Source of the DNA: Anaerolineae bacterium | Lineage (GTDB): Bacteria > Chloroflexota > Anaerolineae > Aggregatilineales > Aggregatilineaceae | Direction of reading: 5' to 3' | Assembly (NCBI GenBank): GCA_027494015.1 | Contig: JAOSJP010000014.1 | Location: 1 to 22,376, forward strand | DNA length: 22,376 bases | Shown here: positions 1 through 22,376 of the stretch, piece by piece | Numbering within the stretch: the first letter of the stretch is position 1 | How the letters are laid out: every line of letters starts with the position of its first letter | The notes under the pieces: generated by a model | Told to the model about the DNA's origin: nothing | What the model saw: only the letters and a program-made list of their open reading frames with translations | Database searches by the model: none | Position numbers and translations under genes: made by a program

Positions 1-1778
1 CCAAGAGCCTGCGCAGCCGCGTGCGCAGCTACTTCCAGCCGGGCAATCACGACCCCAAAGTGCTCAAGATTCGCCACGAGACGGCAGACATCCAGTTCAT
101 CCTCACCGGCGACGAGCTGAAGGCGCTCATCACCGAAGCAGAGCTGATCCGCGTCCACAAGCCGCGCTACAACGTCCTGCTCAAGGACGACAAGCGCTAC
201 CCGTACATCCGCGTGACGACCGCCGACGCCTTCCCCACCGTCGAGATGACGCGGCGCGTGGACCGCCGCGACGGGCACCGCTACTTCGGCCCCTTCACCT
301 CGGCGGGCGGCGTGCGCGAGACGCTCGACGTGCTGCGCCGCGCCTTCCCCTACCTGACCTGCGACCGCGAGATCACCGGGCAGGACGCGCGCGCCTGCCT
401 GTACTACGACATCAAGCTGTGCGGCGCGCCGTGCATCGGGGCACAGACGCGCGACGAATACCGCGAGAGCATCAACGGGCTGATGCGCGTGCTCTCCGGC
501 CACGCCCAGGAAGTGCTGGCCGACCTGCGCGCGCAGATGGAGGCGGCGGCAGAGGCGCTCGACTTCGAGCGGGCGGCCATCCTGCGCGACCGCATCAAGG
601 TCGTGGCCCAGATTTCCTCGCGCCAGCGCCTCGTGGCCGACATTGACGCCGACCAGGACGTGATCGCCTTCGCCCAGGAGGGCAGCGACGCCGTCGTGCA
701 GATGTTCCTCATCCGCAGCGGGCGGCTCGTCGGCAGCGAGTACTTCGCCCTGGCAGGCTCCGAAGACACCGGCGCGGCGGACATCGTGGCTGGCTTCCTG
801 ACGCAGTTCTACCAGGACGCAGCGGACATCCCGCGCGAGGTCGTGCTGCCCGCCGACGTGCAGGAGGCGCGCATCATCGAGCAGTGGCTCGCCGACAGGC
901 GCGGCGGCAAGAAGGTGAAGCTGACCGTGCCCAAGCGCGGCAACAAGCGCGAGCTGGTGCAGCTTGCCGCGCAGACCGCCGCCGAGAAGCTGCAAATCCT
1001 GCGCGCGCAGTGGGAGTCCGACACGGTCAAGCAGGAGGCGGCGCTGCGCGAGATTGAAGAGGCGCTGGGCCTGCCGCGCCCGCCCAACCGCATCGAGTGC
1101 TTCGACATCAGCACGACGCAGGGCACGGCCATCGTCGCCAGCCGGGTTGTCTTCGCCCGGGGCGTGCCGCGCAAGAGCGAGTACCGCCGCTTCAACATCC
1201 GCACGGTGGCCCACGAAGGCTCGGACGACTACCAGTCCATGCGCGAAGCGCTGACCCGCCGCTTCCAGCGCCACGCCGAGACCGTCGCCAACCCGCTGCC
1301 GGTCGAGCCGGGCAAGCAGGATCACGACGAGACGTGGCGGCTGCTGCCCGACCTGCTGATCGTGGACGGGGGCAAGGGCCAGCTTGGGGTGGCGGTCGAG
1401 GTGCTGGCCGGGTTCGGGCTGGCGGAGCGCGTGCCGGTGGCCGGGCTGGCCAAGCAGTTCGAGGAGATCTTTCTGCCGGGCCGCCCGCACTCCGTCCTGC
1501 TGCCGCGCCGCAGTGAGGGGTTGTTCCTGTTGCAGCGCGTGCGCGACGAAGCGCACCGCTTCGCCATCACCAGCCACCGCCAGCGGCGGGGCAAGGCGGG
1601 CCTGGCCAGCCAGCTTGAGGACGTGCCGGGCATCGGCCCGCAGCGGCGCAAGGCGCTGCTCAAGGCGTTCGACCGCGACATCGAGGCGATTCGCGCGGCG
1701 AGCGTCGAGGAGCTGACCGCCGTGCCGGGCATCACCCGCGAGATCGCCGAGAATCTCAAGGCGGCGCTGGGCGGGTAG
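1..1778 (+). CDS. uvrC: UvrC excinuclease subunit, 5'-truncated by window edge (left copy)
   Basis: UvrC makes the dual incisions around lesions in UvrABC nucleotide excision repair. The frame is open from base 3 (KSLRSRVRSYFQ), so the gene starts before the window; the GTG at 21 is internal, not the true start. Missing at the front is most of the GIY-YIG 3'-incision nuclease domain. Numbering from the GTG at 21, a UVR helical hairpin that contacts UvrB lies near residues 173-195 (core ALDFERAAILRDRI). The RNase H-like 5'-incision domain follows, with acidic residues in ECFDIS (D about 362) and VDGGKGQL (D about 449) and the histidine of DEAHRF (about 512). Two helix-hairpin-helix motifs close the protein (VPGIGPQRRKALL near 535, VPGIT near 567). 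It converges on the reductase gene. It differs from the right copy by about 14 residues. Confidence 0.96.
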   Translation, partial: KSLRSRVRSYFQPGNHDPKVLKIRHETADIQFILTGDELKALITEAELIRVHKPRYNVLLKDDKRYPYIRVTTADAFPTVEMTRRVDRRDGHRYFGPFTSAGGVRETLDVLRRAFPYLTCDREITGQDARACLYYDIKLCGAPCIGAQTRDEYRESINGLMRVLSGHAQEVLADLRAQMEAAAEALDFERAAILRDRIKVVAQISSRQRLVADIDADQDVIAFAQEGSDAVVQMFLIRSGRLVGSEYFALAGSEDTGAADIVAGFLTQFYQDAADIPREVVLPADVQEARIIEQWLADRRGGKKVKLTVPKRGNKRELVQLAAQTAAEKLQILRAQWESDTVKQEAALREIEEALGLPRPPNRIECFDISTTQGTAIVASRVVFARGVPRKSEYRRFNIRTVAHEGSDDYQSMREALTRRFQRHAETVANPLPVEPGKQDHDETWRLLPDLLIVDGGKGQLGVAVEVLAGFGLAERVPVAGLAKQFEEIFLPGRPHSVLLPRRSEGLFLLQRVRDEAHRFAITSHRQRRGKAGLASQLEDVPGIGPQRRKALLKAFDRDIEAIRAASVEELTAVPGITREIAENLKAALGG

Positions 1779-1994
1779 CGGTATAGCTCAACAAGCCGAT
1801 CTATTGCCTCACCCCCTAAATCCCCCTCTCCAACCGAGTTAGAGAGGGGGACTTTGGCAGGCTGGCGTGGCATCTTCCCCCTCTCTGGCTTTGCCGGGGA
1901 GGGGGCCAGGGGAGGGGCGTTCTGCCCGTACCGCGCACCCAGAAGTCTCAAGATGGTGCGCATGGGCGTATTGCACATGCCCCGGCAAACATCC
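1779..1994. repeat. Intergenic palindromic repeats between convergent uvrC and reductase genes
   Basis: No gene is visible here. A 9-bp perfect stem CCCCCTCTC/GAGAGGGGG lies at 1822-1830 and 1842-1850. A weaker related hairpin spans 1877-1905 and is followed by another G-rich block. Near 1961-1983 there is a degenerate relative of the palindrome at 18084-18111 (GGGCGTATTGCACATGCCCC). These could end transcription from both convergent genes, but no T-tract follows, so that is only a guess. The right arm has unrelated sequence here, including a secreted-protein gene. Confidence 0.7.
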
Positions 1995-2975
1995 TCAGCG
2001 GCGGAACCAGTTGCGAGTCACCCCGGTCAGCTCGTCCAGGCGCAGCATCTCGTCTTCGGTCAGGCGCAGATCAACCGCGCCCAGCGATTCCTCCAACTGG
2101 GCGACGGTGTTGGCCCCGACAATTGGCGCGGTGACGAAGGGCTGCGTCAGCAGCCAGGCCAGCGCCATTTGCGCGACCGTCGCCCCGCGCTGCTCGCCCA
2201 TCTCGTGCAGCGCGTCCACAATGCGGAAGTTCTGCTCGGTGCGGTAGCCGGCGATGCGCGCGCTCTGCGCCCCGCGCGAATCGGGCGGCACCGTGTCGCG
2301 CGTGTACTTGCCGGTGAGGAAACCGCCCGCCAGCGGGCTGTAGGGGATCATGCCAATGCCCTGATCCAGGCACAGCGCGGCCAGGTCTGGCTCGACCTCG
2401 GCGCGGTTGAGCAGGTTATAGTGCGGCTGGATGCAGTCGTAGCGGGCCAGCCCGTGCCTGTCGCTGATCCACAGTGCCTTGGTCAGCAGCCAGGCGGCGT
2501 GATTGCTCGCGCCGATGTAGCGCACCTTGCCCGCGCGCACCAGGTCGTCGAGCGCGCGCAGCGTCTCGTCGAGCGGCGTGTCCCAGTCGGGATGGTGCGT
2601 CTGGTAGAGGTCAATCGTCTCCACCCCCAGCCGCCGCAGGCTGTCTTCGACGGCGAGCATGATGTGCTGGCGGCTGAGGCCCTCGCCGTTCGGCCCGGCC
2701 CACATGCGCCCGCGCACTTTGGTGGCAATGACCACTGTGTGGCGCAGCTTGGTCTTGAGCCACTTGCCGACGATCCGCTCAGCAATGCCGCCGGGGTTGC
2801 CCGGCGCCCAGTTGCTGTAGATGTCGGCGGTGTCAATAAAGTTGATGCCCGCGTCATAAGCCCGGTCGAGCACGCGCAGCGCCTGCTGCTCGGTGCTCGT
2901 CCAGCGAAACGTCATGGTGCCCAGGCACAACGCGCTGACTTTCAGCCCCGTCCGGCCCAGCTTGCGGCACTCCAT
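1995..2975 (-). CDS. Aldo/keto reductase (left copy)
   Basis: This is a 326-residue NAD(P)H-dependent aldo/keto reductase, a cytosolic (alpha/beta)8-barrel enzyme. The catalytic tetrad can be read: D48 and Y53 in IDTADIYS, K86 in IATKVRG and H127 in LYQTHHPD. The early GTMTF strand and late cofactor-side sequences (YSPLAGGFLTGKY, PIVGANTVAQLEESL) fit the oxidoreductases related to general stress protein 69 and YajO. The substrate cannot be told. The ATG is preceded by a strong purine-rich ribosome site (AGGGAGGGAG on the minus strand, about 2981-2990). The gene is divergent from the radical SAM gene and convergent with uvrC. The right copy differs at five residues, none in the tetrad. Confidence 0.95.
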   Translation of the reverse strand: MECRKLGRTGLKVSALCLGTMTFRWTSTEQQALRVLDRAYDAGINFIDTADIYSNWAPGNPGGIAERIVGKWLKTKLRHTVVIATKVRGRMWAGPNGEGLSRQHIMLAVEDSLRRLGVETIDLYQTHHPDWDTPLDETLRALDDLVRAGKVRYIGASNHAAWLLTKALWISDRHGLARYDCIQPHYNLLNRAEVEPDLAALCLDQGIGMIPYSPLAGGFLTGKYTRDTVPPDSRGAQSARIAGYRTEQNFRIVDALHEMGEQRGATVAQMALAWLLTQPFVTAPIVGANTVAQLEESLGAVDLRLTEDEMLRLDELTGVTRNWFRR

Positions 2976-3022
2976 GTGCGCTCCCTCCCTGCTTGGTGAT
3001 CGCCATCCCTGTTCGCTTCCCT

Positions 3023-3051
3023 AGTTAAGACCCAAGCCAGCGAAAAGTCAA
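3023..3051 (-). promoter_or_regulatory. Candidate promoter of the left reductase gene
   Basis: On the minus strand TTGACT (3046-3051) is followed, after a 17-bp spacer, by TTAACT (3023-3028), about 48 bases before the ATG. The -35 is a 5/6 match, the -10 is weak. The same block is kept in the right arm up to the point where the two intergenic regions diverge, which supports a function. Confidence 0.45.
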
Positions 3052-3088
3052 ACGCCTCGGCGGGGGTCTCTCGCGATGGGGACGAAAC

Positions 3089-3380
3089 ACCTCAACCGCA
3101 GAGGTGCAGAGAGCGCAGAGAAAAGCAAGGAATCCTCACCGTTCGGGTCCACGCATGAGTTATCAGCGATTGCCGAAGGCCCCCATCCCCGGCCCCTTCC
3201 CCCAGCAAAGCCAGGGGAAGGGGAGAGCTGCTCGCCAGATCGTCCCCCCTCTAGCTTCGCTGGAGGGGGGATTGAGGGGGGAGGCCTTCAGCGAGCATTC
3301 CCGAACTTCCCCTGGCAACAGGTTGGTCGTGGACCCTCACCGCTCTTCTCTGGGTCCTCTGCGCCTCTGCCGTTCAAACG
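3089..3380. mobile_element. MITE-like element with long imperfect terminal inverted repeats (left arm only)
   Basis: This gene-free stretch is bounded by imperfect inverted repeats of about 45-50 bp. The left end reads AACCGCAGAGGTGCAGAGAG and on to GGGTCCACG near 3156. The right end, in reverse complement, reads AACGGCAGAGGCGCAGAGGA and on to the same GGGTCCACG near 3330. Inside are a 10-bp perfect stem CCCCTTCCCC/GGGGAAGGGG (3193-3202 and 3214-3223) and a second hairpin at 3244-3270. The end sequence belongs to the widely scattered CCGCAGAGGCGCAGAGA-type repeat, also seen after tlyA. No transposase is encoded. A reading frame running through it into the radical SAM gene is fortuitous, because the right arm lacks it. 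Confidence 0.7.
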
Positions 3381-3400
3381 TCTTTCAGCCGCCAGCAGGC

Positions 3401-3406
3401 TATAAT
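3401..3406 (+). promoter_or_regulatory. Candidate -10 box (TATAAT) of the left radical SAM gene
   Basis: A perfect TATAAT lies 37 bases before the radical SAM start and is conserved in the right arm at 17914-17919. No good -35 is visible at 16-18 bp. It lies just inside the block where arm homology resumes (GTTCAAACGTC). Confidence 0.5.
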
Positions 3407-3442
3407 CTGGATCGCAGTGACGCACCAAACGGAAACGCAGCC

Positions 3443-4648
3443 ATGCCCATCCACGTCACCGACCCGGCCACCGGGGACACCATCACCGCCAGCCTGGCGG
3501 GCAGCGCGCTGGTCATCTCGCCACGCTTCGGCGAAAGCTACAGCTTCGACCGCGCTGGGCGACTGCTCGGCCTGTTTCGCGACGAGCGCAGCTACCAGCG
3601 GACGCTCGATCACCGCCTGCTGGAGCGGCTGAGCGGTCGCAACAACGGCCCGCGCCGCCGCGAGCTGCCGCCAGACGAAGCGGACGCCCTGCTGGAGCGG
3701 ACGTTTGCCGGGCTGCGCGCGCTCGCCGAGACGCTGCCGTGCCTGGACGTGCCGCCCGACGACCGCCGCCTGCTGGCCGGCAGCCTGGCCGAAGTGCTCG
3801 CCTTCGGGCCGGAGCGCCTGGCCGCCGACGGGGCGACCTTCCGCCATCTCTACAAGCCGGTGAGCATCCTGCCGCCCGACCAGTACCTGGCGCTCGTGCT
3901 TCAGGCGACGGAGGGCTGCACGTGGAACCGCTGTACCTTCTGCGGCCTGTACCGCGACCGCGCCTTCCGCGCCCACAGCCCGGACTCCTTCCGCGCGCAC
4001 TGCGCCGCCGTGCGCGACTTCTTCGGCGAGGGGATCAGCCTGCGGCGCGGTCTCTTCCTGGCGGACGCCAACGCGCTCGTGCTCTCGATGGAGCGGCTGC
4101 GCGCGATCTTCGCCATCGCCCAGGACTTCTTTCGGCTGCCCGACGGGCCGCGCCCGGTCTTCTCCTTCGTCAGCGCGTTCGACGTGGGGCGCAAACCGGC
4201 GGACGAATGGGCAGAGCTGGCCGCGCTGGGGCTGCGCCGCGCCTACATCGGCCTGGAGACGGGCGACGACGCGCTGCTGCGCTTTCTCAACAAGCCGGGG
4301 ACGGTCGCCGATGCGGTGGAGGCCGTGCGCGCGCTGCGCGCGGGGGGCGTGGCGGTCGGCGTGATCGTCATGGCAGGCATCGGCGGCGAACGCTACGCGG
4401 AAGCGCACGTCGCCGGGTCCGTAGAGGCGATCCGGGCAATGGGTCTCGGCCAGGGAGATCAGGTGTACCTGTCCAGTTACGTCTCCGCGCCGGGCACGGA
4501 GTACGGCGCGCTGGCGGCAGAAGCGGGGATTCGCCCGCTGAGCGCCGAGGAGAGTGATGCGCAGCGCCAGGCGTTGCAGGCGCAGATGCGCGCGGCGGCT
4601 CCAGAGGCCATTGTCGCCCCGTACCACGTGGACGGGTTCGCACTATGA
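3443..4648 (+). CDS. Radical SAM domain protein (left copy)
   Basis: This 401-residue protein is predicted to cleave S-adenosylmethionine reductively with a [4Fe-4S] cluster and start radical chemistry; the substrate is unknown. The cluster ligands appear as EGCTWNRCTFCGLY, with C159, C164 and C167, giving CX4CX2C where the canonical spacing is CX3CX2C. Later segments (LADANALVLS, RRAYIGLETGDD, GGVAVGVIVMAGIGG) look like the barrel strands of COG1032/Elp3-like enzymes. About 130 residues precede the cluster and carry no recognisable domain. The ATG at 3443 was chosen because it matches the only possible start in the right arm (17877). The frame stays open upstream to 3104, but through repeat sequence. 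It differs from the right copy at about 11 residues and converges on the unknown membrane-anchored gene 35 bp away. Confidence 0.9.
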   Translation: MPIHVTDPATGDTITASLAGSALVISPRFGESYSFDRAGRLLGLFRDERSYQRTLDHRLLERLSGRNNGPRRRELPPDEADALLERTFAGLRALAETLPCLDVPPDDRRLLAGSLAEVLAFGPERLAADGATFRHLYKPVSILPPDQYLALVLQATEGCTWNRCTFCGLYRDRAFRAHSPDSFRAHCAAVRDFFGEGISLRRGLFLADANALVLSMERLRAIFAIAQDFFRLPDGPRPVFSFVSAFDVGRKPADEWAELAALGLRRAYIGLETGDDALLRFLNKPGTVADAVEAVRALRAGGVAVGVIVMAGIGGERYAEAHVAGSVEAIRAMGLGQGDQVYLSSYVSAPGTEYGALAAEAGIRPLSAEESDAQRQALQAQMRAAAPEAIVAPYHVDGFAL

Positions 4649-4683
4649 CGCTCTCGTGACCGGCGCGCGCCCGGCTCAATCTC

Positions 4684-5283
4684 TCAGATGCGAGTGAGGC
4701 GCTGGCGACGGGGTGCGGGCGGCTTGTGAAAGCCAAAAACATTAATGCGCTTGTGCATCCGCTCCGCCTGAGCGAGCACGTGCGCGGCGAAATCCACCGC
4801 GTCGGCGCGCTCGTCGGTGGGGATGGGGATGGTCATGGTGCGGCCCTGGAAGGGGACGATGATCAGGGCGAAGGTGTAGGAAGTGGTCGTCTGGCGGTCG
4901 GTTGAGCCGTCCCCATCGGAATCGGCGAAACTGAAGCCAGGCTGCATCCGCACGCCCACGCCGCCAATGTCGGCCCAGCGCAGCGCGGCAGTGGCGCTGG
5001 CGGGGGCCGGGGTGCGCCGCCGCTCCACGCCCGCCGCGCTCAGTATGTAGATGGAACCGGAGGGCGACTTCCAGGACAGCACGCCCGTGCCGAGCGTGAG
5101 CGGCGCGATCTCGTGGTAGCGTTCCACAATGCGGCGCAGCGTGGTCTGGCAGCGCGCGTAGTCGAGCGGTGTCTCGCTGGCAGCCAGGTCCGGGTGCTGG
5201 TGAACATAGCCGAGGGCGCGCAGCAGCACCACAACGGTCACAACGAGCAGGATCAACGCGGTGATGAGCGCAGCAGCCAGCAT
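4684..5283 (-). CDS. Membrane-anchored protein of unknown function (left copy)
   Basis: I do not recognise the family. The 199-residue product starts with one hydrophobic helix (about residues 2-22, rich in L, V and A). A mostly polar domain follows, with a few beta-like hydrophobic stretches (SGSIYILSAAG, YTFALIIVPFQG) and an acidic aspartate/glycine/serine stretch, FADSDGDGSTD, resembling a metal-binding loop. The C-terminus is basic (PPAPRRQRLTRI). It looks like a single-pass protein with most of its mass on one side of the membrane; orientation is uncertain. It is the third gene of a tight operon, 15 bp behind mevalonate kinase, and both arms keep it intact with only four amino-acid differences. 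That suggests a real protein and perhaps a link to isoprenoid lipid metabolism, which is inference from position only. Confidence 0.82.
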   Translation of the reverse strand: MLAAALITALILLVVTVVVLLRALGYVHQHPDLAASETPLDYARCQTTLRRIVERYHEIAPLTLGTGVLSWKSPSGSIYILSAAGVERRRTPAPASATAALRWADIGGVGVRMQPGFSFADSDGDGSTDRQTTTSYTFALIIVPFQGRTMTIPIPTDERADAVDFAAHVLAQAERMHKRINVFGFHKPPAPRRQRLTRI

Positions 5284-5298
5284 GAGCGCGCTTCCCGG

Positions 5299-6252
5299 CT
5301 AGAGGCCTGGCGGGATGCGCGTAGCTAGCACGCGGGTCGCGCCAGCCCGTCGCAAGGCAGCGGTTACCGGCGCGGCCTCCGCTTCGCCCACCAGGGCGAT
5401 GATCGCGCCACCTCGCCCGCCGCCAGAGAGCTTGGCACCATGCGCGCCCGCGTCACGCGCCGCCTGGCACAGCCTGTCCAATGAATCGGAGGAGACAGTT
5501 AGCTCGCGCAGCAGCGCATGATTCTCGTCCATAAGTGGGCCGAGCGAGTCCAGATCGCCAGACTCAAGGCTCTGGCGAGCGGCGCGCGCGATCTCGCCTA
5601 TGCGGGCGAAAAGGGCGTTCAGGCGAGGCGGATCGGCGTCGTGCAGGCGGCGCACGTCGGCGACGGTCAGGCGGGTGGGGCTGCTCTGGCCGCTGTCGGC
5701 GACGAGCAGGGTGAAGGGCCGGGCGACGGCGAAGGTCTGCGGCGCGGTCCCGCGCACGAAGTAGACGGGGCGGGCGTAGACGATCACGGTGTTGTCAATG
5801 CCGCTCGGCGTCCCGTGATGGCGCTTCTCCACCTCATAGACCAGCGGATTGAGCGCGTCATCAGTCAGTGGCGCGCCCAGCGCAGCGGCCAGCGCGCGCA
5901 TGATGGCCGTTGCCAGGGCGGCCCCGCTGCCCAGCCCGCTGGCGACGGGAATCGTCGAGCGCACAGTCAGCCGCAGGTCAGGCGCGGGCGCGCGCAGGTG
6001 ATCCAGGAGCAGGTGGGCGGGATAGATCAGCGCATCGAAGAACGGATCGCCTGGCGTGGCCTGCGCCGCGACGACGGCCTGGCCGAGGCCGGCAGCGTCG
6101 AAGACCAGCCCGCTCCCCGGCGGGCCTGGCTCAGCAGCGGCAGTCACCTGGACAGCGGTCAGCGGCGCGGCGATGGCTGGCTGCCCATAGACGACGGCGT
6201 GCTCGCCAAAGAGGATGATCTTGCCCGGCGCTGAGGCGCTGACGGCGGCCAT
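5299..6252 (-). CDS. mvk: Mevalonate kinase, GHMP family (left copy)
   Basis: Mevalonate kinase phosphorylates mevalonate with ATP in the mevalonate route to isopentenyl diphosphate. The 317-residue protein has the GHMP-kinase motifs in order: PGKIILFGEHAVVYG at residues 9-23, the ATP-binding glycine loop VASGLGSGAA (103-112), GTPSGIDN (147-154) carrying the catalytic aspartate D153, and the C-terminal KLSGGGRGGAI (about 274-284). GEHAVVYG and SGIDN point to mevalonate kinase rather than phosphomevalonate or homoserine kinase. It lies between ubiA (18 bp upstream) and the unknown membrane protein (15 bp downstream), so the three are probably cotranscribed. No other mevalonate gene is in the window. 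The copies differ at about seven residues, mostly in a variable stretch near 59-84. Confidence 0.92.
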   Translation of the reverse strand: MAAVSASAPGKIILFGEHAVVYGQPAIAAPLTAVQVTAAAEPGPPGSGLVFDAAGLGQAVVAAQATPGDPFFDALIYPAHLLLDHLRAPAPDLRLTVRSTIPVASGLGSGAALATAIMRALAAALGAPLTDDALNPLVYEVEKRHHGTPSGIDNTVIVYARPVYFVRGTAPQTFAVARPFTLLVADSGQSSPTRLTVADVRRLHDADPPRLNALFARIGEIARAARQSLESGDLDSLGPLMDENHALLRELTVSSDSLDRLCQAARDAGAHGAKLSGGGRGGAIIALVGEAEAAPVTAALRRAGATRVLATRIPPGL

Positions 6253-6270
6253 AGGCGTGCAGCGGCTCCC

Positions 6271-7194
6271 TCACAGAACGTACAGGACCACGCCGGCGGT
6301 GATCACCCAGAGGACGACGGCCAGCAGCAGCGGCATATCCTCGAACAGCAATTCGTCCGGCGCGCTGCCCTGCCCGCGCACGTGGATCAGGTACAGGTAG
6401 CGAAAGATGCCGTAGAGGACAAAGGGAATGGTCAGCATCATGCTGTAGCCGTTGACGCGGATAGTGGTCGCCTCGACGGTGTAGAGCATGTAAGTGAGCA
6501 CGCTGCCGGTGGTGACCATGCGCAGCATGTCGTCCAGCAGGGGCATGTTGTAGTCTTTGTACGTCGCGCGCACGTTCTCAGCGTCTTCGGCCAGCAAGAT
6601 CAGCTCCTGGCGGCGCTTGCCGATGGCCAGGAAGAGCGCCAGCAACCCCGCGCACAGGTACAGCCAGGGCGAGAAATGGGTCACATCTATGACCACGATG
6701 CCAGCGACCACGCGCAGCACGAACCCGCCCGCGATGGCGAAGACATCGAGCAGCACAATATTCTTCAGGAAGAACGAGTAAGCGATGTGCAGGGCGAGAT
6801 AGGCGAGCAAGACGACCGCCAACTGCCAGGTCAGCAGCAGGCTGGCGGCCAGCGCGATCACCGGCATGACGGCGGCGGCAGCAATCGCCCACCTGACCGG
6901 CAGTTGCCCGGAGGGCAGCGGGCGCTGGCGCTTGCGCGGGTGGAGGCGGTCGCGCTCGATGTCCACCAGATCGTTGATCAGGTAGATGGTGCTGGCCGCC
7001 AGGCACAGCAGGAGGAAGGTGGCTACCACGCGCGCCAGTGGCTCGGCCTGTGTGAACTGCTGGTCGAACAGGAGGGCGGCGAAGACGAAGCCATTCTTCG
7101 ACCACTGAATGGGCCGCATCGTCGCAATCAAGCCCCGCACAGGGGTTGGCAGCGTGTTCCACAGGGGGCGCAGCGCAGTCTTCACTGAGGTCAC
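6271..7194 (-). CDS. UbiA-family prenyltransferase, decaprenyl-phosphate phosphoribosyltransferase-like (left copy)
   Basis: This is a 307-residue polytopic membrane protein of the UbiA superfamily. The Mg/diphosphate-binding motif NDxxDxxxD is at residues 74-82 (NDLVDIERD), followed by RLHPRKRQRPLPSG. The early RPIQWSKN (27-34) and later KRRQEL, YKDYN and TTGSVLTYMLYT segments resemble the DPPR synthase branch (decaprenyl-phosphate + PRPP, Rv3806c-like) more than quinone or heme prenyltransferases. Several hydrophobic helices are obvious. It starts at a GTG with GGAGG seven bases upstream, and it leads an operon with mevalonate kinase and the unknown membrane protein. A TATAAT lies upstream. 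The exact substrate (ribose-phosphate donor or an aromatic acceptor) cannot be settled here. Only two residues differ from the right copy. Confidence 0.88.
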   Translation of the reverse strand: MTSVKTALRPLWNTLPTPVRGLIATMRPIQWSKNGFVFAALLFDQQFTQAEPLARVVATFLLLCLAASTIYLINDLVDIERDRLHPRKRQRPLPSGQLPVRWAIAAAAVMPVIALAASLLLTWQLAVVLLAYLALHIAYSFFLKNIVLLDVFAIAGGFVLRVVAGIVVIDVTHFSPWLYLCAGLLALFLAIGKRRQELILLAEDAENVRATYKDYNMPLLDDMLRMVTTGSVLTYMLYTVEATTIRVNGYSMMLTIPFVLYGIFRYLYLIHVRGQGSAPDELLFEDMPLLLAVVLWVITAGVVLYVL

Positions 7195-7232
7195 GCGATT
7201 TCCTCCACACCAACACTGTTCACTGGGGGCGC

Positions 7233-7238
7233 ATTATA
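7233..7238 (-). promoter_or_regulatory. Candidate -10 box of the left ubiA-mvk operon
   Basis: Minus-strand TATAAT lies 38 bases upstream of the ubiA GTG. The ribosome site GGAGG is at 7202-7206. No clear -35 is seen. The MITE-like array begins about 30 bp further upstream, so its units sit where activators or the -35 region would be. Confidence 0.5.
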
Positions 7239-7268
7239 CCAGGGTTGTGCGCCCGCCCATAGCTCGGC

Positions 7269-7861
7269 GGGTGCGTGCACAACCCCTCAGGTAGGGACGC
7301 TGCTCTGCTCGCCCTGCTTGACCTCACCCCCGCTCGGCGCTGATGCGCCTCGCCGCCCCCTCTCCGTTGACGGAGAGGGGGCAAGCCGAGCGCAGCGAGG
7401 CTGGGGGTGAGGTCCATATCCCCGCGCCCAGCGAGTCGCTGTCAACTTTTGCATGCACCCACAGCAAACGGTGCGTGCACAACCCGTCAGGTAGGGACGC
7501 TGCTCTGCTCGCCCTGCTTGACCTCACCCCCGCTCGGCGCTGACGCGCCTCGCCGCCCCCTCTCCGTCAACGGAGAGGGGGCAAGCCGAGCGCAGCGAGG
7601 CTGGGGGTGAGGTCCATATCCCCGCGCCCAGCGAGTCGCTGTCAACTTTTGCACGCACCCACAGCAAACGGTGCGTGCACAACCCGTCAGGTAGGGGCGC
7701 TGCTCTGCTGCGCCCTGCTTGACCTCACCCCCGCTCGGCGCTGACGCGCCTCGCCGCCCCCTCTCCGTCAACGGAGAGGGGGCAAGCCGAGCGCAGCGAG
7801 GCTGGGGGTGAGGTCCATATCCCCGCGCCCAGCGAGTCGCTGTCAACTTTTGCATGCACCC
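7269..7861. repeat. Tandem array of three ~191-bp MITE-like units (left arm)
   Basis: Three nearly identical units (7269-7460, 7470-7660, 7670-7861) are spaced exactly or nearly 200 bp apart and separated by the 9-bp linker ACAGCAAAC. Each unit begins GGTGCGTGCA and ends TGCAYGCACC, giving about 10-11 bp terminal inverted repeats. Inside each is a 95-bp imperfect palindrome (7320-7414, 7520-7614, 7721-7815). Its outer stem is GACCTCACCCCC/GGGGGTGAGGTC and its inner stem CCCCCTCTCCG/CGGAGAGGGGG has a 4-nt loop. A perfect TTGACA sits near one end of each unit. No convincing protein is encoded. The array fills most of the 739 bp between the divergent ubiA and tlyA genes. The right arm has only two units. 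Confidence 0.9.
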
Positions 7862-7933
7862 TAGTCCGGCGCAGGGTGGGAGCGCGCCAGGCAATGCGGT
7901 AGACTCGCCGCGCTAACGCGGAGACGGAGCAAG

Positions 7934-15048: not shown

Positions 15049-15066
15049 GGGAGCCGCTGCACGCCT

Positions 15067-16020: not shown

Positions 16021-16035
16021 CCGGGAAGCGCGCTC

Positions 16036-16635
16036 ATGCTGGCCGCTGCGCTCATCACCGCGTTGATCCTGCTCGTTGTGACCGTTGTGGTGCTGCTGCG
16101 CGCGCTCGGCTACGTTCACCAGCACCCGGACCTGGCTGCCAGCGAGACACCGCTCGACTACGCGCGCTGCCAGACCACGCTGCGCCGCATTGTGGGACGC
16201 TACCACGAGATCGCGCCGCTCACGCTCGGCACGGGCGTGCTGTCCTGGAAGTCGCCCTCCGGTTCCATCTACATACTGAGCGCGGCGGGCGTGGAGCAGC
16301 GGCGCACTCCGGCCCCCGCCAGCGCCACTGCCGCGCTGCGCTGGGCCGACATTGGCGGCGTGGGCGTGCGGATGCAGCCTGGCTTCAGTTTCGCCGATTC
16401 CGATGGGGACGGCTCAACCGACCGCCAGACGACCACTTCCTACACCTTCGCCCTGATCATCGTCCCCTTCCAGGGCCACACCATGACCATCCCCATCCCC
16501 ACCGACGACCGCGCCGACGCGGTGGATTTCGCCGCGCACGTGCTGGCCCAGGCGGAGCGGATGCACAAGCGCATCAATGTGTTCGGCTTTCACAAGCCGC
16601 CCGCACCTCGTCGCCAGCGCCTCACCCGCATCTGA
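16036..16635 (+). CDS. Membrane-anchored protein of unknown function (right copy)
   Basis: This is the second copy of the 199-residue protein with one N-terminal membrane helix and the acidic loop FADSDGDGSTD. Four residues differ (G for E in RRIVGRYHE, Q for R in GVEQRRTP, H for R and D for E around FQGHTMTIPIPTDD). The hydrophobic anchor and the loop are identical. The gene ends 36 bp from the stop of the convergent radical SAM gene. The short gap contains a G/C-only palindrome (GGGGCGCGCGCC), a possible but weak shared terminator. Confidence 0.82.
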   Translation: MLAAALITALILLVVTVVVLLRALGYVHQHPDLAASETPLDYARCQTTLRRIVGRYHEIAPLTLGTGVLSWKSPSGSIYILSAAGVEQRRTPAPASATAALRWADIGGVGVRMQPGFSFADSDGDGSTDRQTTTSYTFALIIVPFQGHTMTIPIPTDDRADAVDFAAHVLAQAERMHKRINVFGFHKPPAPRRQRLTRI

Positions 16636-16671
16636 GAGATTGAGCCGGGGCGCGCGCCGGTCACGAGAGCG

Positions 16672-17877
16672 TCATAGTGCGAACCCGTCCACATGGTACG
16701 GGGCGACAATGGCCTCTGGAGCCGCCGCTCGCATCTGCGCCTGCAACGCCTGGCGCTGCGCGTCACCCTCCTCAGCGCTCAGCGGGCGAATCCCCGCTTC
16801 TGCCGCCAGCGCATCGTACTCCGTGCCCGGCGCGGAGACGTAATTGGACAGGTACACCTGGTCGCCTGGGCCGAGGCCCATTGCCCGGATCGCCTCTACG
16901 GACCCGGCTACGTGCGCTTCCGCATAGCGTTCGCCGCCGATGCCCGCCATAACGATCACGCCGACCGCCACGCCTCCCGCGCGCAGCGCGCGCACGGCCT
17001 CCACCGCGTCGGCGACCGTCCCCGGCTTGTTGAGGAAGCGCAGCAGCGCGTCGTCGCCCGTCTCCAGGCCGATATAGGCGCGGCGCAGCCCCAGCGCGGC
17101 CAGCTCTGCCCACTCATCCGCCGACTTGCGCCCCACGTCGAACGCACTGACGAAAGAGAAGACCGGGCGCGGCCCGTCGGGCAGCCGAAAGAAGTCCTGG
17201 GCGATGGCGAAGATCGCGCGCAGCCGCTCCAGCGAGAGCACGAGCGCGTTGGCGTCGGCCAGGAAGAGGCCGCGCCGCAGGCTGATCCCCTCGCCGAAGA
17301 AGTCGCGCACGGCGGCGCAGTGCGCGCGGAAGGAGTCCGGGCTGTGGGCGCGGAAGGCTCGGTCGCGGTACAGGCCGCAGAAGGTGCAGCGGTTCCACGT
17401 GCAGCCCTCTGTCGCCTGCAACACGAGCGCCAGGTACTGGTCGGGCGGCAGGATGCTCACCGGCTTGTACAGGCGGCGGAAGGTCGCCCCGTCGGCGGCC
17501 AGGCGTTCCGGCCCGAAGGCGAGCACTTCGGCCAGGCTGCCGGCCAGCAGGCGGCGGTCGTCGAGCGGCACGTCCAGGCGCGGCAGCGTCTCGGCGAGCG
17601 CGCGCAGCCCGGCAAACGTCCGCTCCAGCAGGGCGTCCGCTTCGCCCGGCGGCAGCTCGCGGCGGCGCGGGCCGTTGTTGCGACCGCTGAGCCGCTCCAG
17701 CAGGCGGTGATCGAGCGTCCGCTGGTAGCTGCGCTCGTCACGGAACAGGCCGAGCAGTCGCCCGGAACGGTCGAAGCTGTAGCTTTCGCCGAAGCGCGGC
17801 GAGATGACCAGCGCGCTGCCCGCCAGGCTGGCGGTGATGGTGTCCCCGGTGGCCGGGTCGGTGACGTGGATGGGCAT
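16672..17877 (-). CDS. Radical SAM domain protein (right copy)
   Basis: This 401-residue protein starts MPIHVTDPATGDT. The CX4CX2C cluster motif (C159, C164, C167) is identical to the left copy, so the unusual spacing is not a single-read error. About 11 residues differ, mainly in the N-terminal part (S/A in DRSGRL, G/D in PPGEAD, R/C and L/P around 100-105) and near the C-terminus (P/Q, N/S and D/G in GLGPGDQVYLSNYVSAPG). The start is fixed here because the upstream frame is not open as it is in the left arm. It is divergent from the reductase gene. Confidence 0.9.
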   Translation of the reverse strand: MPIHVTDPATGDTITASLAGSALVISPRFGESYSFDRSGRLLGLFRDERSYQRTLDHRLLERLSGRNNGPRRRELPPGEADALLERTFAGLRALAETLPRLDVPLDDRRLLAGSLAEVLAFGPERLAADGATFRRLYKPVSILPPDQYLALVLQATEGCTWNRCTFCGLYRDRAFRAHSPDSFRAHCAAVRDFFGEGISLRRGLFLADANALVLSLERLRAIFAIAQDFFRLPDGPRPVFSFVSAFDVGRKSADEWAELAALGLRRAYIGLETGDDALLRFLNKPGTVADAVEAVRALRAGGVAVGVIVMAGIGGERYAEAHVAGSVEAIRAMGLGPGDQVYLSNYVSAPGTEYDALAAEAGIRPLSAEEGDAQRQALQAQMRAAAPEAIVAPYHVDGFAL

Positions 17878-17913
17878 GGCTGCGTTTCCGTTTGGTGCGT
17901 CGCTGCGATCCAG

Positions 17914-17919
17914 ATTATA
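17914..17919 (-). promoter_or_regulatory. Candidate -10 box of the right radical SAM gene
   Basis: Minus-strand TATAAT is at the same distance from the start as in the left arm. It is conserved although the sequence beyond about 17945 is unrelated between arms. Confidence 0.5.
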
Positions 17920-17955
17920 GCCTGCTGGCGGCTGAAAGACGTTTGAACCGCCAAG

Positions 17956-18152
17956 CAGGGCAATCGCATCAAACGTGCGTGTTGTTCTACCTCACCCCCA
18001 GCCTCGCCCCGCTCGGCTTGCCCCCTCTCCGTCAACGGAGAGGGGGCGGCGAGGCGCGCCAGCGCCGAGCGGGAGTGAGGTCCGTAGGGGCGTATTGCAA
18101 TACGCCCCTACAAGCAGGCTGGCGCGCGGCGGACTTTGATGTGATTGCCCTG
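17956..18152. mobile_element. MITE-like element with 18-bp terminal inverted repeats (right arm only)
   Basis: The ends are CAGGGCAATCGCATCAAA (17956-17973) and its inverse TTTGATGTGATTGCCCTG (18135-18152), with one mismatch. The interior holds one copy of the same 95-bp palindrome family as the tlyA-ubiA arrays (17989-18082) and a 28-bp perfect palindrome (18084-18111). No coding capacity is visible. It occupies the reductase-radical SAM gap, where the left arm has a different element. Confidence 0.78.
18084..18111. repeat. 28-bp perfect palindrome
   Basis: The sequence starts GTAGGGGCGTATTG and is its own reverse complement over all 28 bases. A degenerate relative is in the left arm near 1961-1983. 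It could form a cruciform or bind a dimeric protein; no role can be assigned. Confidence 0.85.
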
Positions 18153-18165
18153 ACCGCCGAGGCGT

Positions 18166-18194
18166 TTGACTTTTCGCTGGCTTGGGTCTTAACT
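18166..18194 (+). promoter_or_regulatory. Candidate promoter of the right reductase gene
   Basis: TTGACT (18166-18171), a 17-bp spacer and TTAACT (18189-18194) match the left-arm block at 3023-3051. The ribosome site GGGAGGA (18228-18234) precedes the ATG at 18242. Confidence 0.45.
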
Positions 18195-18241
18195 AGGGAA
18201 GCGAACAGGGATAGCGCTCACCGAGCAGGGAGGAAGCGCAC

Positions 18242-19222
18242 ATGGAGTGCCGCAAGCTGGGCCGGACGGGGCTGAAAGTCAGCGCGTTGTGCCTGGGCAC
18301 CATGACGTTTCGCTGGACGAGCACCGAGCAGCAGGCGCTGCGCGTGCTCGACCGGGCCTATGACGCGGGCATCAACTTTATTGACACCGCCGACATCTAC
18401 AGCAACTGGGCGCCGGGCAACCCCGGCGGCATTGCTGAGCGGATCATCGGCAAGTGGCTCAAGACCAAGCTGCGCCACACAGTGGTCATTGCCACCAAAG
18501 TGCGCGGGCGCATGTGGGCCGGGCCGAACGGCGAGGGCCTCAGCCGCCAGCACATCATGCTCGCCGTTGAAGACAGCCTGCGGCGGCTGGGGGTGGAGAC
18601 GATTGACCTCTACCAGACGCACCATCCCGACTGGGACACGCCGCTCGACGAGACGCTGCGCGCGCTCGACGACCTGGTGCGCGCGGGCAAGGTGCGCTAC
18701 ATCGGCGCGAGCAATCACGCCGCCTGGCTGCTGACCAAGGCACTGTGGATCAGCGACAGGCACGGGCTGGCCCGCTACGACTGCATCCAGCCGCACTACC
18801 ACCTGCTCAACCGCGCCGAGGCTGAGCCAGACCTGGCCGCGCTGTGCCTGGATCAGGGCATTGGCATGATCCCCTACAGCCCGCTGGCGGGCGGTTTCCT
18901 CACCGGCAAGTACACGCGCGACACGGTGCCGCCCGATTCGCGCGGGGCGCAGAGCGAGCGCATCGCCGGCTACCGCACCGAGCAGAACTTCCGCATTGTG
19001 GACGCGCTGCACGAGATGGGCGAGCAGCGCGGGGCGACGGTCGCGCAAATGGCGCTGGCCTGGCTGCTGACGCAGCCCTTCGTCACCGCGCCGATTGTCG
19101 GGGCCAACACCGTCGCCCAGTTGGACGAGTCGCTGGGCGCGGTTGATCTGCGCCTGACCGAAGACGAGATGCTGCGCCTGGATGAGCTGACCGGGGTGAC
19201 TCGCAACTGGTTCCGCCGCTGA
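18242..19222 (+). CDS. Aldo/keto reductase (right copy)
   Basis: This is the second copy of the 326-residue reductase, with D48, Y53, K86 and H127 intact. Five conservative or surface-type differences from the left copy are visible: I for V in ERIIGK, H for N in PHYHLLN, A for V in RAEAEP, E for A in QSERIAG and D for E in QLDESLG. The start is supported by GGGAGGA seven bases upstream. Downstream, only the first 15 or so bases after the stop resemble the left arm before the sequences part. A secreted-protein gene then converges on this one. Confidence 0.95.
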   Translation: MECRKLGRTGLKVSALCLGTMTFRWTSTEQQALRVLDRAYDAGINFIDTADIYSNWAPGNPGGIAERIIGKWLKTKLRHTVVIATKVRGRMWAGPNGEGLSRQHIMLAVEDSLRRLGVETIDLYQTHHPDWDTPLDETLRALDDLVRAGKVRYIGASNHAAWLLTKALWISDRHGLARYDCIQPHYHLLNRAEAEPDLAALCLDQGIGMIPYSPLAGGFLTGKYTRDTVPPDSRGAQSERIAGYRTEQNFRIVDALHEMGEQRGATVAQMALAWLLTQPFVTAPIVGANTVAQLDESLGAVDLRLTEDEMLRLDELTGVTRNWFRR

Positions 19223-19291
19223 GCGTGTTTGCGGGGGCGGTTGGCATTGCTCCTGAGGCGCAAGCGCCGCTGCTGCCCGGCCTGTAAACGA

Positions 19292-19319
19292 CAGGGGCGA
19301 GCTACCATGCTCGCCCCTG
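19292..19319. terminator. Strong hairpin between convergent genes
   Basis: A perfect 11-bp stem CAGGGGCGAGC/GCTCGCCCCTG has a 6-nt loop, TACCAT. It lies 17 bases past the end of the secreted-protein gene and 70 bases past the reductase stop, so it could stop transcription from either side. On the minus strand only a short TCGTTT follows, so a classic intrinsic terminator is not fully met. Confidence 0.55.
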
Positions 19320-19336
19320 CGCCGCATCTCGACCAG

Positions 19337-20305
19337 CTACTCCACGACTTCGGTTGGCAGCGGTCTGCCCTGCCACACTTCGTCGTAGTTAGGCCCCATG
19401 ACGCTGGTGGGCAGCCAGAAGAACTGGCCGGACAACATGACCTTGTAAAAGGTACCGCTGGCGTCCACACCGTAGACCCACAGGGTTTTTCCTGCCGCGA
19501 TGGTGATCCCGGTCTGGGCGTCGGCCTGCGGCGCGTAGTAGGCTGGCGTGTCGGCCAGCACCGACCCGACCACCGCCGTTTCCGGGATGGGAACCATGTC
19601 GGGGCCGGGCACGGGCACGAGAGGCTCTTCGTCATCCGGGACGAAAACTTCGCCCTCAGCGCGAATGGCCATCGCTTTGCCACCAGGCCAGTAGGTTGTC
19701 AGACCTACCCATGTCGCGCCGCCATCCGTTGACGTCAAGCCGGCAATTGCGCCGCCCGGCCCATTCTCGTCGCTGCACAGAAAGACGGAGGGTTCGGTAA
19801 CTGCATTGAAATTGAAGCCGATCCAGATGCCGGAGGTGGTCACCTGCACAGCCGCCGGAACCGCATACCATGCCCCCGGCAGAGCGCCAGGAATGCCAGT
19901 GGCGTTGGCGCTGACGCGCCCAAGCTCGGAGCCTGGCTGCCCCCCGTCGTCGGCGAACACAACCATGTCAAAGGCTTTGGTGGGCGAGCCTAAGCTAACC
20001 AGGCAGACGCAGAACTGAGTCAGCTTGAATGGCGTTTCGGGCAGCGCGTAGTATTCGGCAAAGTAGGCGCTGGTGATACCGGCGCCCGAGTAGAAGCTGT
20101 ACCCATTCTCGAACGTGCCGCCGTCGTTCTGCAGGCCGCCGGCGCAGTCGGGAGCCGGGCTGAGGGTTACGCCCCCTTCCGCAGGTGCGCGGCCCGCTTC
20201 CCCAAGGCTGGTTGCCGGTGAACCGTCCTGACCGTAGGCTGGCGCGATAACAGCCAGCGTCAGCACGACGACGATTGCCAGACTCAACCAGTGTGTGCGC
20301 TTCAT
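19337..20305 (-). CDS. Secreted protein with C-terminal SH3-like domain (right arm only)
   Basis: The 322-residue product starts with a signal peptide: MKRTHW, a hydrophobic core to about residue 23, and likely cleavage near APA or AYG at 23-25. The mature part is rich in G, A, S and T, with a beta-sandwich look and four cysteines (PDCAGG, FCVC, FLCSD) that could form disulfides. Repeated phrases such as VVFADDGGQPGSELG and TSGIWIGFNF resemble extracellular beta-sandwich modules. After a proline/acid-rich linker (about 224-245), residues about 253-305 (PAYYAPQADA, LWVYGVDASG, FFWLPTSVMG) look like a bacterial SH3-type domain common in Chloroflexota exported proteins. Function is unknown; cell-surface binding is a guess. 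AAGGAG (20317-20322) lies 11 bases before the ATG. The left arm lacks the gene entirely. Confidence 0.85.
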   Translation of the reverse strand: MKRTHWLSLAIVVVLTLAVIAPAYGQDGSPATSLGEAGRAPAEGGVTLSPAPDCAGGLQNDGGTFENGYSFYSGAGITSAYFAEYYALPETPFKLTQFCVCLVSLGSPTKAFDMVVFADDGGQPGSELGRVSANATGIPGALPGAWYAVPAAVQVTTSGIWIGFNFNAVTEPSVFLCSDENGPGGAIAGLTSTDGGATWVGLTTYWPGGKAMAIRAEGEVFVPDDEEPLVPVPGPDMVPIPETAVVGSVLADTPAYYAPQADAQTGITIAAGKTLWVYGVDASGTFYKVMLSGQFFWLPTSVMGPNYDEVWQGRPLPTEVVE

Positions 20306-20502
20306 GTCGTTTGCATCTCCTTATATGATGAATGCAGAGAGTTTCGAGGATAGAAGAGGTGGCAACAGACCGTAAGTCACTAATGAATTGTAATTATATT
20401 CACAGGGCGCGCAAGCGATCGTGAGCATCGCCAATAAGTGAACTAAGAAGAAAAGGATTCCGCCGCCGGTTCGAGCGCCTTTGTCCCCCTGCCTGCGCCC
20501 GG
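20306..20502. other. AT-richer intergenic region upstream of the secreted-protein gene
   Basis: About 100 bases (20320-20420) are clearly richer in A/T than the neighbourhood and contain AATTGTAATTATATTCAC, a likely promoter zone for the leftward secreted-protein gene. No tRNA, small ORF or hairpin of note is seen. It has no counterpart in the left arm. Confidence 0.5.
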
Positions 20503-22376
20503 CTACCCGCCCAGCGCCGCCTTGAGGTTGGCGGCGATCTCGCGGGTGATGCCCGGCACGGCGATCAGCTCCTCGACGCTCGCCGCGCGAATGGCCTCGA
20601 TGGCGCGGTCGAACGCCTTGAGCAGCGCCTTGCGCCGCTGCGGGCCGATGCCCGGCACGTCCTCAAGCTGGCTGGCCAGGCCCGCCTTGCCCCGCCGCTG
20701 GCGGTGGCTGGTGATGGCGAAGCGATGCGCCTCGTCGCGCACGCGCTGCAACAGGAACAGCCCCTCGCTGCGGCGCGGCAGCAGGACGGAGTGCGCGCGG
20801 TCCGGCAGAAAAATCTCCTCGAACTGCTTGGCCAGCCCGGCCACCGGCACGCGCTCCGTCAGCCCGAACCCGGCCAGCACCTCGACCGCCACCCCAAGCT
20901 GGCCCTTGCCCCCGTCCACGATCAGCAGGTCGGGCAGCAGCCGCCACGTCTCGTCGTGATCCTGCTTGCCCGGCTCGACCGGCAGCGGGTTGGCGACGGC
21001 GTCGGCGTGGCGCTGGAAGCGGCGGGTCAGCGCCTCGCGCATGGACTGGTAGTCGTCGGAGCCTTCGTGGGCCACCGTGCGGATGTTGAAGCGGCGGTAC
21101 TCGCTCTTGCGCGGCACGCCCTGGGCGAAGACCACCCGGCTGGCGACGATGGCCGTGCCCTGCGTCGTGCTGATGTCGAAGCACTCGATGCGGTTGGGCG
21201 GGCGCGGCAGGCCCAGCGCCTCTTCAATCTCGCGCAGCGCCGCCTCCTGCTTCACCGTGTCGGACTCCCACTGCGCGCGCAGGATTTGCAGCTTCTCGGC
21301 GGCGGTCTGCGCGGCAAGCTGCACCAGCTCGCGCTTGTTGCCGCGCTTGGGCACGGTCAGCTTCACCTTCTTGCCGCCGCGCCTGTCGGCGAGCCACTGC
21401 TCGATGATGCGCGCCTCCTGCACGTCGGCGGGCAGCACGACCTCGCGCGGGATGTCCGCCGCGTCCTGGTAGAACTGCGTCAGGAAGCCCTCCACGATGT
21501 CCGCCGCGCCGGTGTCCTCAGAGCCTGCCAGGGCGAAGTACTCGCTGCCGACGAGCCGCCCGTTGCGGATGAGGAACATCTGCACGACGGCGTCGCTGCC
21601 CTCCTGGGCGAAGGCGATCACGTCCTGGTCGGCGTCTATGTCCGCCACCAGCCGCTGGCGCGAGGAGATCTGGGCCACGACCTTGATCCGGTCGCGCAGG
21701 ATGGCCGCCCGCTCGAAGTCGAGCGCCTCAGCCGCCGCCTCCATCCCCGCGCGCAGGTCGGCCAGCACTTCCTGGGCATGGCCGGAGAGCACGCGCATCA
21801 GCCCGTTGATGCTCTCGCGGTATTCGTCGCGCGTCTGCGCCCCGATGCACGGCGCGCCGCACAGCTTGATGTCGTAGTACAGGCAGGCGCGCGCGTCCTG
21901 CCCGGTGATCTCGCGGTCGCAGGTCAGGTAGGGGAAGGCGCGGCGCAGCACGTCGAGCGTCTCGCGCACGCCGCCCGCCGAGGTGAACGGGCCGAAGTAG
22001 CGGTGGCCGTCGCGCCGGTCTACGCGCCGCGTCATCTCGACGGTGGGGAAGGCGTCGGCGGTCGTCACGCGGATGTATGGGTAGCGCTTGTCGTCCTTGA
22101 GCATGACGTTGTAGCGCGGCTTGTGGACGCGGATCAGCTCCGCCTCGGTGATCAGCGCCTTCAGCTCGTCGCCGGTGAGGATGAACTGAATGTCCGCCGT
22201 CTCGTGGCGAATCTGGAGCACTTTGGGGTCGTGGTTGCCCGGCTGGAAGTAGCTGCGCACGCGGCCCCCGCAGGCTCTTGGCCTTGCCCACGTAGAGGAT
22301 CGTCCCGGTGGGATCCAGCATCTGGTAGACGCCGGGATCGGCGGGCAGGTTGGCGAGGATGTCCTGGATGTGCTCG
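20503..22376 (-). CDS. uvrC: UvrC excinuclease subunit, +1 frameshift near 5' end, truncated by window edge (right copy)
   Basis: From 22260 down to 20503 the frame encodes the same 585 residues as the left copy, with about 14 substitutions and all nuclease, UVR and HhH motifs kept. Upstream, residues typical of the GIY-YIG domain (LPADPGVYQM, TILYVGKAKSLRG) are in another frame. The break is at the C5 run 22265-22269 (G5 on the coding strand). Removing one base restores SLRGRVRSYFQ, matching the left copy's SLRSRVRSYFQ. The gene continues past the window end. Either this copy has lost its 3'-incision domain fusion, or a homopolymer was misread. If real, translation from the GTG at 22260 would give a protein without the first nuclease domain. 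Confidence 0.93.
   Translation of the reverse strand, partial: STSRTSSPTCPPIPASTRCWIPPGRSSTWARPRACGGRVRSYFQPGNHDPKVLQIRHETADIQFILTGDELKALITEAELIRVHKPRYNVMLKDDKRYPYIRVTTADAFPTVEMTRRVDRRDGHRYFGPFTSAGGVRETLDVLRRAFPYLTCDREITGQDARACLYYDIKLCGAPCIGAQTRDEYRESINGLMRVLSGHAQEVLADLRAGMEAAAEALDFERAAILRDRIKVVAQISSRQRLVADIDADQDVIAFAQEGSDAVVQMFLIRNGRLVGSEYFALAGSEDTGAADIVEGFLTQFYQDAADIPREVVLPADVQEARIIEQWLADRRGGKKVKLTVPKRGNKRELVQLAAQTAAEKLQILRAQWESDTVKQEAALREIEEALGLPRPPNRIECFDISTTQGTAIVASRVVFAQGVPRKSEYRRFNIRTVAHEGSDDYQSMREALTRRFQRHADAVANPLPVEPGKQDHDETWRLLPDLLIVDGGKGQLGVAVEVLAGFGLTERVPVAGLAKQFEEIFLPDRAHSVLLPRRSEGLFLLQRVRDEAHRFAITSHRQRRGKAGLASQLEDVPGIGPQRRKALLKAFDRAIEAIRAASVEELIAVPGITREIAANLKAALGG

What the first reader, a model, noticed from the sequence alone, without database searches (positions are those of the whole stretch)
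1..22376. Giant imperfect palindrome: about 9 kb of housekeeping genes duplicated in inverted orientation
Seven genes, including normally single-copy uvrC and tlyA, occur twice in mirror order around a 3.7-kb unique centre. All duplicated frames except one uvrC are intact, and the proteins differ by 0.7-2.7%, so neither copy is dead and the repeat is not a trivial mirror artefact. Two explanations compete: a real segmental inverted duplication under selection, or two strain haplotypes of one species joined through the IS by an assembler. Duplicated single-copy genes at strain-level divergence favour the second; intact arms with independent insertions fit both.
Basis: partly seen in the sequence, partly recalled or inferred. 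Interest (0 to 1): 0.82.

Follow-up and report, generated by a model that had tools for sequence, protein, structure and literature searches.

The report
Two strain haplotypes wrongly joined
The 22-kb mirror-image stretch is really on the contig, but it is best read as the same stretch of chromosome from two close strains, stitched head to head through a mobile element by the assembly program, so it is probably not a real duplication.

Summary
The palindrome is in the sequence: arms 1-8907 and 22281-12612, seven gene pairs, 3,704 nt between. The evidence favours two strain haplotypes joined at an IS66 element (8908-10396). (1) In relative G005 one 266,866-bp contig carries uvrC-AKR-rSAM-hyp-MVK-UbiA-tlyA-FHA-rnc, colinear with the window's right arm plus centre; homology stops exactly at the IS right edge. 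(2) Left-right homology stops exactly at the IS left edge. (3) The flanking octamers differ at 7 of 8 positions, whereas 9 of 11 two-ended elements with the same ends have perfect 8-bp target duplications, though only 1 of the 3 full-size ones. (4) tlyA and uvrC never occur in two full-length copies in relatives (found in 54 and 56 of 61). (5) The arms differ like strains: 107 synonymous, 48 non-synonymous changes, dN/dS 0.16, 80 versus 69 changes against G005. (6) The contig ends lie 95 nt apart in the same gene. Reads were not available, so a real IS-mediated inverted duplication is not excluded (about 7%).

The parts
1..8907 (+). left arm: allele B of the uvrC-tlyA block
12612..22281 (-). 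right arm: allele A of the same block, mirror order (contig runs 95 nt further in uvrC)
8908..10396 (+). IS66-family element with 13-nt exact terminal repeats, the junction; flanking octamers GGTAGAAT / AACCAATA, no target duplication
8964..10388 (+). IS66 transposase, 474 aa (DDE_Tnp_IS66, zf-IS66, DUF6444)
10397..12611 (-). unique centre continuing allele A: rnc, FHA protein, PIN-like insert; colinear with G005 apart from this insert and a 2-kb stretch in G005
10429..11298 (-). rnc, ribonuclease III frame (true start probably further in; most close relatives listed are 237-240 aa)
11246..11773 (-). zinc-ribbon/FHA-domain protein
3..1778 (+). uvrC, left copy, cut by contig start
20503..22376 (-). 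uvrC, right copy, cut by contig end, frame broken near the contig end
1995..2975 (-). aldo/keto reductase, left
18242..19222 (+). aldo/keto reductase, right
3443..4648 (+). radical SAM protein, left
16672..17877 (-). radical SAM protein, right
4684..5283 (-). 199-aa hypothetical, left (no Pfam match)
16036..16635 (+). 199-aa hypothetical, right
5299..6252 (-). mevalonate kinase, left
15067..16020 (+). mevalonate kinase, right
6271..7194 (-). UbiA family (NCBIfam: decaprenyl-phosphate phosphoribosyltransferase), left
14125..15048 (+). UbiA family, right
7934..8752 (+). tlyA, left
12767..13585 (-). tlyA, right
19239..20501 (-). 1.26-kb stretch only in the right arm (with a 322-aa hypothetical, 19337-20305); uvrC and AKR nearly abut in G005
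7270..7870 (+). three tandem ~200-nt repeat units in the left arm; the right arm (13658-14025) has one unit fewer

Best explanation
The contig is an assembly chimera of two alleles (strains) of one Chloroflexota species, Anaerolineae-like by the titles of its nearest relatives. Allele A (right arm plus centre, read on the minus strand) runs uvrC...tlyA-FHA-rnc and enters an IS66 copy 32 nt past rnc. Allele B (left arm) runs uvrC...tlyA and enters an IS66 copy 155 nt past tlyA. The assembler took the IS66 sequence, present at both places, as one and left it along the wrong flank, folding A onto B. Shown: the palindrome, colinearity of A with a relative, breakpoints at the IS ends, missing target duplication, no double copies of tlyA or uvrC in relatives, strain-like divergence. 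Inferred: that both alleles have the IS, and that the join was made by the assembler and not in a cell.
For: (a) G005 contig C2 (266,866 bp) holds the block in right-arm order. In 6 of 6 relatives in which I saw tlyA and FHA/rnc on one contig (G001-G006) tlyA has the right-arm orientation to FHA/rnc, and none of the six shows tlyA-IS-rnc. (b) L-R homology ends at 8907; homology with G005 ends at 10397 and with G003 at 10398, i.e. at the two IS ends. (c) The octamers beside the IS differ at 7 of 8 positions. Of 11 two-ended elements with these ends found in 46 loci scanned, 9 have perfect 8-bp duplications: 8 of 8 short and 1 of 3 full-size. (d) tlyA found in 54 of 61 genomes, uvrC in 56 of 61, none with two full-length copies. 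(e) 107 synonymous, 48 non-synonymous changes, dN/dS 0.16; L-only 80, R-only 69 against G005 (chi2 0.81, p 0.37); third positions 111 of 155. (f) Contig ends 95 nt apart in the same gene. (g) Arms share exact stretches up to 463 nt, the IS is 1,489 nt, so within this contig it is the longest repeat to cross. (h) In G148, 22 of 70 hits to the terminal repeat start within 130 nt of a contig's first base, so such elements break assemblies.
Against: No reads or coverage; no genome is held for the window; no contig with the alleles apart was obtained. Missing duplication is weak on its own: 2 of 3 full-size relatives also lack it, and IS-IS recombination in a cell would remove it too. The IS's copy number in this species is unknown: in 151 genomes around G005 the longest match is 66% over 1,049 nt, with 2 candidates scored per genome. 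Near-identical transposases exist elsewhere: P0001, 100%, on a 2,147-nt contig with different residues upstream, and P0020, 98% over 82%, on a 256,466-nt contig. Colinearity of the whole block is seen in G005 alone: in G001 and G004 uvrC, AKR, radical SAM and tlyA lie on different contigs, and in L001 no radical SAM match lies near the 199-aa gene. The assembler resolved arms with 18 shared exact stretches of 127 nt or more, so it had long-range links; if these were long reads, a 1.5-kb IS should have been spanned.
Confidence: 0.88

Rival explanations
1. A real inverted segmental duplication in one genome, made by recombination between IS66 copies in opposite orientation on sister chromosomes or incoming strain DNA, both copies then kept by selection.
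For: Frames intact in both arms and under purifying selection; IS at the junction without target duplication, as IS-IS recombination would leave; natural very large inverted repeats exist in L. delbrueckii ssp. bulgaricus (PMC5345009, passages seen).
Against: A sister-chromosome exchange predicts an IS beside the right tlyA too, and none is there. Seven gene pairs diverged symmetrically with none decayed. No relative examined has two full-length tlyA or uvrC. PMC5345009 found such repeats in 5 L. delbrueckii chromosomes and in none of 1373 others; its filter asked for arms of at least 98% identity, which these diverged, interrupted arms would probably miss, so that prior is only indicative.
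Confidence: 0.07
2. A real IS-mediated rearrangement, such as an inversion, in a minor strain, so that the junction exists in some cells but the two arms together do not.
For: Junction exactly at an IS with unmatched flanks; elements with the same ends are repeated in some relatives.
Against: Needs an extra event and still needs two alleles to supply the arms (inference).
Confidence: 0.04
3. A laboratory hairpin or amplification artefact copying one molecule onto itself.
For: Overall palindromic shape.
Against: 365 mismatches in 8,602 aligned bases, third positions 111 of 155, different inserts in the arms; a hairpin copy would be near identical.
Confidence: 0.01

Closest known systems
Palindromic contigs as assembly artefacts (PMC9455707, M. 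bovis; PMC12755884, cyanobacterial SAGs; passages seen)
   Same: Contigs whose halves mirror each other, with duplicate gene sets, judged likely assembly artefacts by those authors.
   Different: Theirs are described as identical gene sets or exact mirrors; here coding arms differ by about 2% and carry different inserts, which points to two strains.
Misassembly among closely related strains (PMC9661791, PMC8021871; passages seen)
   Same: Repeats, shared mobile elements and close strains are named as causes of assembly errors.
   Different: The head-to-head form at a single IS66 copy is not described in the passages seen.
Natural very large inverted repeats of L. delbrueckii ssp. bulgaricus (PMC5345009; passages seen)
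   Same: Long arms around a unique centre.
   Different: 38-76 kb, at the replication terminus, in all 5 chromosomes analysed; here about 9 kb, on one contig, not seen in relatives.
IS66-family insertion sequence
   Same: IS66 transposase and terminal repeats beginning GTAA; 9 of 11 elements with the same ends have an 8-bp target duplication.
   Different: One transposase gene, no room for tnpA/tnpB in 1,489 nt (one-gene IS66 elements of the ISBst12 kind are recalled, not tested); this copy lacks the duplication.

Membership tests
chimeric (two-strain) assembly join | breakpoints at the ends of a repeat | tested here: met
   homology ends at 8907 and 10397, the IS ends
chimeric (two-strain) assembly join | each side alone matches the normal gene order of a relative | tested here: met
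   right arm plus centre colinear with G005; left arm colinear with it up to near the IS (8757); whole block seen in G005 only
chimeric (two-strain) assembly join | repeat present in several copies in the source genome(s) | tested here: inconclusive
   no genome held; near-identical transposases on two other contigs; same ends repeated in G148
chimeric (two-strain) assembly join | no reads span the join; coverage changes at it | not testable with these tools
   no reads held
genuine segmental inverted duplication | both arms in one genome, arm depth twice single-copy depth | not testable with these tools
   no reads held
genuine segmental inverted duplication | seen in at least one relative (supporting, not required) | tested here: not met
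   no two full-length tlyA or uvrC in 61 genomes each
genuine segmental inverted duplication | relaxed or asymmetric evolution of a redundant copy (expected, not required) | tested here: not met
   dN/dS 0.16; 80 versus 69 changes, p 0.37
IS66 family | IS66 DDE transposase | tested here: met
   PF03050 4.5e-45, NF033517 4.8e-96
IS66 family | terminal inverted repeats | tested here: met
   13-nt exact repeats at 8908 and ending 10396
IS66 family | 8-bp target duplication | tested here: not met
   GGTAGAAT / AACCAATA; concerns this copy's flanks, not the element's kinship

The most novel reading that the evidence does not exclude
An uncultured Chloroflexota carries a stable inverted duplication of housekeeping genes with 9-kb arms, bounded by IS66, in which both copies work and have diverged for a long time.
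Probability: 0.07. Interest if true: 0.55.

Novelty: not a real feature. Interest (0 to 1): 0.1.

Why it matters
Contigs like this inflate gene copy counts and can pass for gene duplication in catalogues of uncultured bacteria. The case gives a read-free set of checks that can be reused: breakpoints at IS ends, unmatched target octamers, single colinear copy in a relative, and symmetric strain-level divergence. If it were real, a long-lived inverted duplication of housekeeping genes would be very unusual.

Tried and rejected
Hairpin or amplification artefact: rejected by the divergence pattern. Decay of one copy: not seen, rates equal and compared frames open. tRNA genes and Rfam families in the window: none found. 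Homologue searches (capped candidate lists, best 120 shown) do not separate the alternatives: the left mevalonate kinase's cluster has 4 member sequences on 3 contigs, the window being the longest, and the others' context is not given; for rnc the best listed hit is 95%, and one 95% cluster (P0242) reaches a 3,733,950-nt contig that I did not examine. Uneven divergence along the arms (dS 0.017 to 0.128, heterogeneity p 5e-9) fits strain recombination as well as gene conversion between duplicates and was not used. Literature searches (listings seen) showed no paper on a strain-diverged head-to-head contig at an IS; that is no proof of absence. Passages of PMC8311964 were seen and not used.
Full report
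Observation. The window is an imperfect palindrome over its whole length. Arms 1-8907 and 22281-12612 match in long blocks at 96-99% (ungapped) or 97-98% (gapped), with 3,704 nt between them. The arms are not clean copies: they carry different stretches between uvrC and AKR (199 nt left, 1,263 nt right) and between AKR and the radical SAM gene (305 nt left, 202 nt right), and three versus two units of a ~200-nt repeat beyond UbiA.

Which arm is normal. tlyA loci from the genome collection gave two relatives, L001 and L002, in which UbiA, tlyA, FHA and rnc are neighbours; in the other loci of that call FHA and rnc were not found beside tlyA at E 1e-8. Closer relatives came from whole-genome search. 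In G005 a single 266,866-bp contig holds uvrC, AKR, radical SAM, the 199-aa protein, mevalonate kinase, UbiA, tlyA, FHA and rnc in the order of the window's right arm plus centre; uvrC and tlyA occur once in that genome. G005 has a 2-kb stretch between FHA and rnc, and the window has a PIN-like insert between tlyA and FHA. In 6 of 6 relatives in which I saw tlyA and FHA/rnc on one contig (G001-G006) the right-arm orientation is kept. Against this, the whole block is colinear in G005 only: in G001 and G004 uvrC, AKR, radical SAM and tlyA lie on different contigs. Right arm plus centre is thus a plausible ordinary chromosomal allele, and the left arm a second allele of its outer part.

The junction. 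Left and right arms match up to base 8907; the right allele matches G005 down to base 10397 and G003 down to 10398. Exactly between lies an IS66-family element, 8908-10396, with 13-nt exact terminal repeats and one 474-aa transposase. One relative (L132) showed a perfect 8-bp target duplication. A wider scan of 46 loci from genomes carrying related elements gave 11 two-ended elements with these ends: 9 with perfect 8-bp duplications (8 of 8 short MITE-like ones, 1 of 3 full-size) and 2 full-size ones without. The window's element has GGTAGAAT and AACCAATA, differing at 7 of 8 positions. Its flanks therefore do not come from one simple insertion: one would belong to an insertion after tlyA, the other to an insertion after rnc. 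An assembler produces this when it leaves a repeat on the wrong side; recombination between two IS copies in a cell would give the same.

Copy number. tlyA was found in 54 of 61 genomes around G001 and uvrC in 56 of 61 around G005. None has two full-length copies; second rows are weak partial matches or parts of one gene on two contigs. Completeness of these genomes is not told.

Divergence. Over the seven pairs there are 107 synonymous and 48 non-synonymous differences, dN/dS 0.16. With G005 as outgroup 80 changes fall on the left copy, 69 on the right (6 undecided; chi2 0.81, p 0.37); third positions hold 111 of 155 differences. Distances to G005 are similar for both (dS 0.13-0.28). Two strains of one species look like this; a redundant duplicate would be expected to decay on one side, though it need not. 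Synonymous divergence varies strongly between genes (0.017 to 0.128), which either explanation allows.

Contig ends and repeats. Exact shared stretches between arms reach 463 nt, while the IS has 1,489 nt, so within this contig the join lies at the longest repeat. That the assembler got through 18 shared stretches of 127 nt or more shows it had long-range links, which cuts both ways. In G148, a genome with related elements, 22 of 70 hits to the terminal repeat start within 130 nt of a contig's first base, so elements with these ends do break assemblies.

Weaknesses. No reads, no coverage and no genome for the window. In 151 genomes around G005 the longest match to this IS is 66% over 1,049 nt (10 of 151 with any match, 2 candidates scored per genome), so its copy number in this species is unknown. 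Near-identical transposases lie on two other contigs (P0001, P0020). If the assembly is from long reads, the join would be harder to blame on the assembler.

Literature. Palindromic contigs are called likely assembly artefacts in PMC9455707 and PMC12755884 (passages seen). Repeats, shared mobile elements and close strains as causes of misassembly are stated in PMC9661791 and PMC8021871 (passages seen). PMC5345009 (passages seen) reports large inverted repeats in all 5 L. delbrueckii ssp. bulgaricus chromosomes analysed and in none of 1373 others; its filter (arms of at least 8 kb, at least 98% identity, less than 10 kb apart) would probably miss arms as diverged as these, so it is only an indication of rarity.

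Verdict. A chimera of two strain haplotypes at an IS66 copy, confidence 0.88; a real inverted duplication 0.07.

Noticed in passing
They account for part of the arm-specific intergenic difference.
   Followed up: partly
window 11954-12600 (minus strand): Possible VapBC-like module between tlyA and FHA: a PIN-like frame (Pfam PIN 22.5 bits, just below its 23.6 cut-off) that appears broken between two frames, and a possible antitoxin frame judged by eye. The tlyA-FHA gap in G005 is too short to hold it.
   Followed up: partly
window 19239-20501: Stretch only in the right arm with a 322-aa hypothetical (no Pfam or NCBIfam match); partial DNA matches elsewhere in 4 of 5 relatives, in a series of five on G005:C26.
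   Followed up: partly
L152, L154, L158, L160, L166, L172, L173, L179 (genomes G148 and G144): Short elements of 147 and 240 nt with the same 13-nt ends as the IS66 element and perfect 8-bp target duplications: MITE-like derivatives of an IS66-family element.
   Followed up: partly
P0001 (protein on a 2,147-nt contig): Transposase identical to the window's over 474 residues but with a 25-residue upstream extension that departs from the window's upstream frame about three codons before the start.
   Followed up: no
P0242 (rnc relative, 95%): Its cluster reaches a 3,733,950-nt contig, probably a near-complete chromosome of a close relative, which could show the single-copy arrangement.
   Followed up: no
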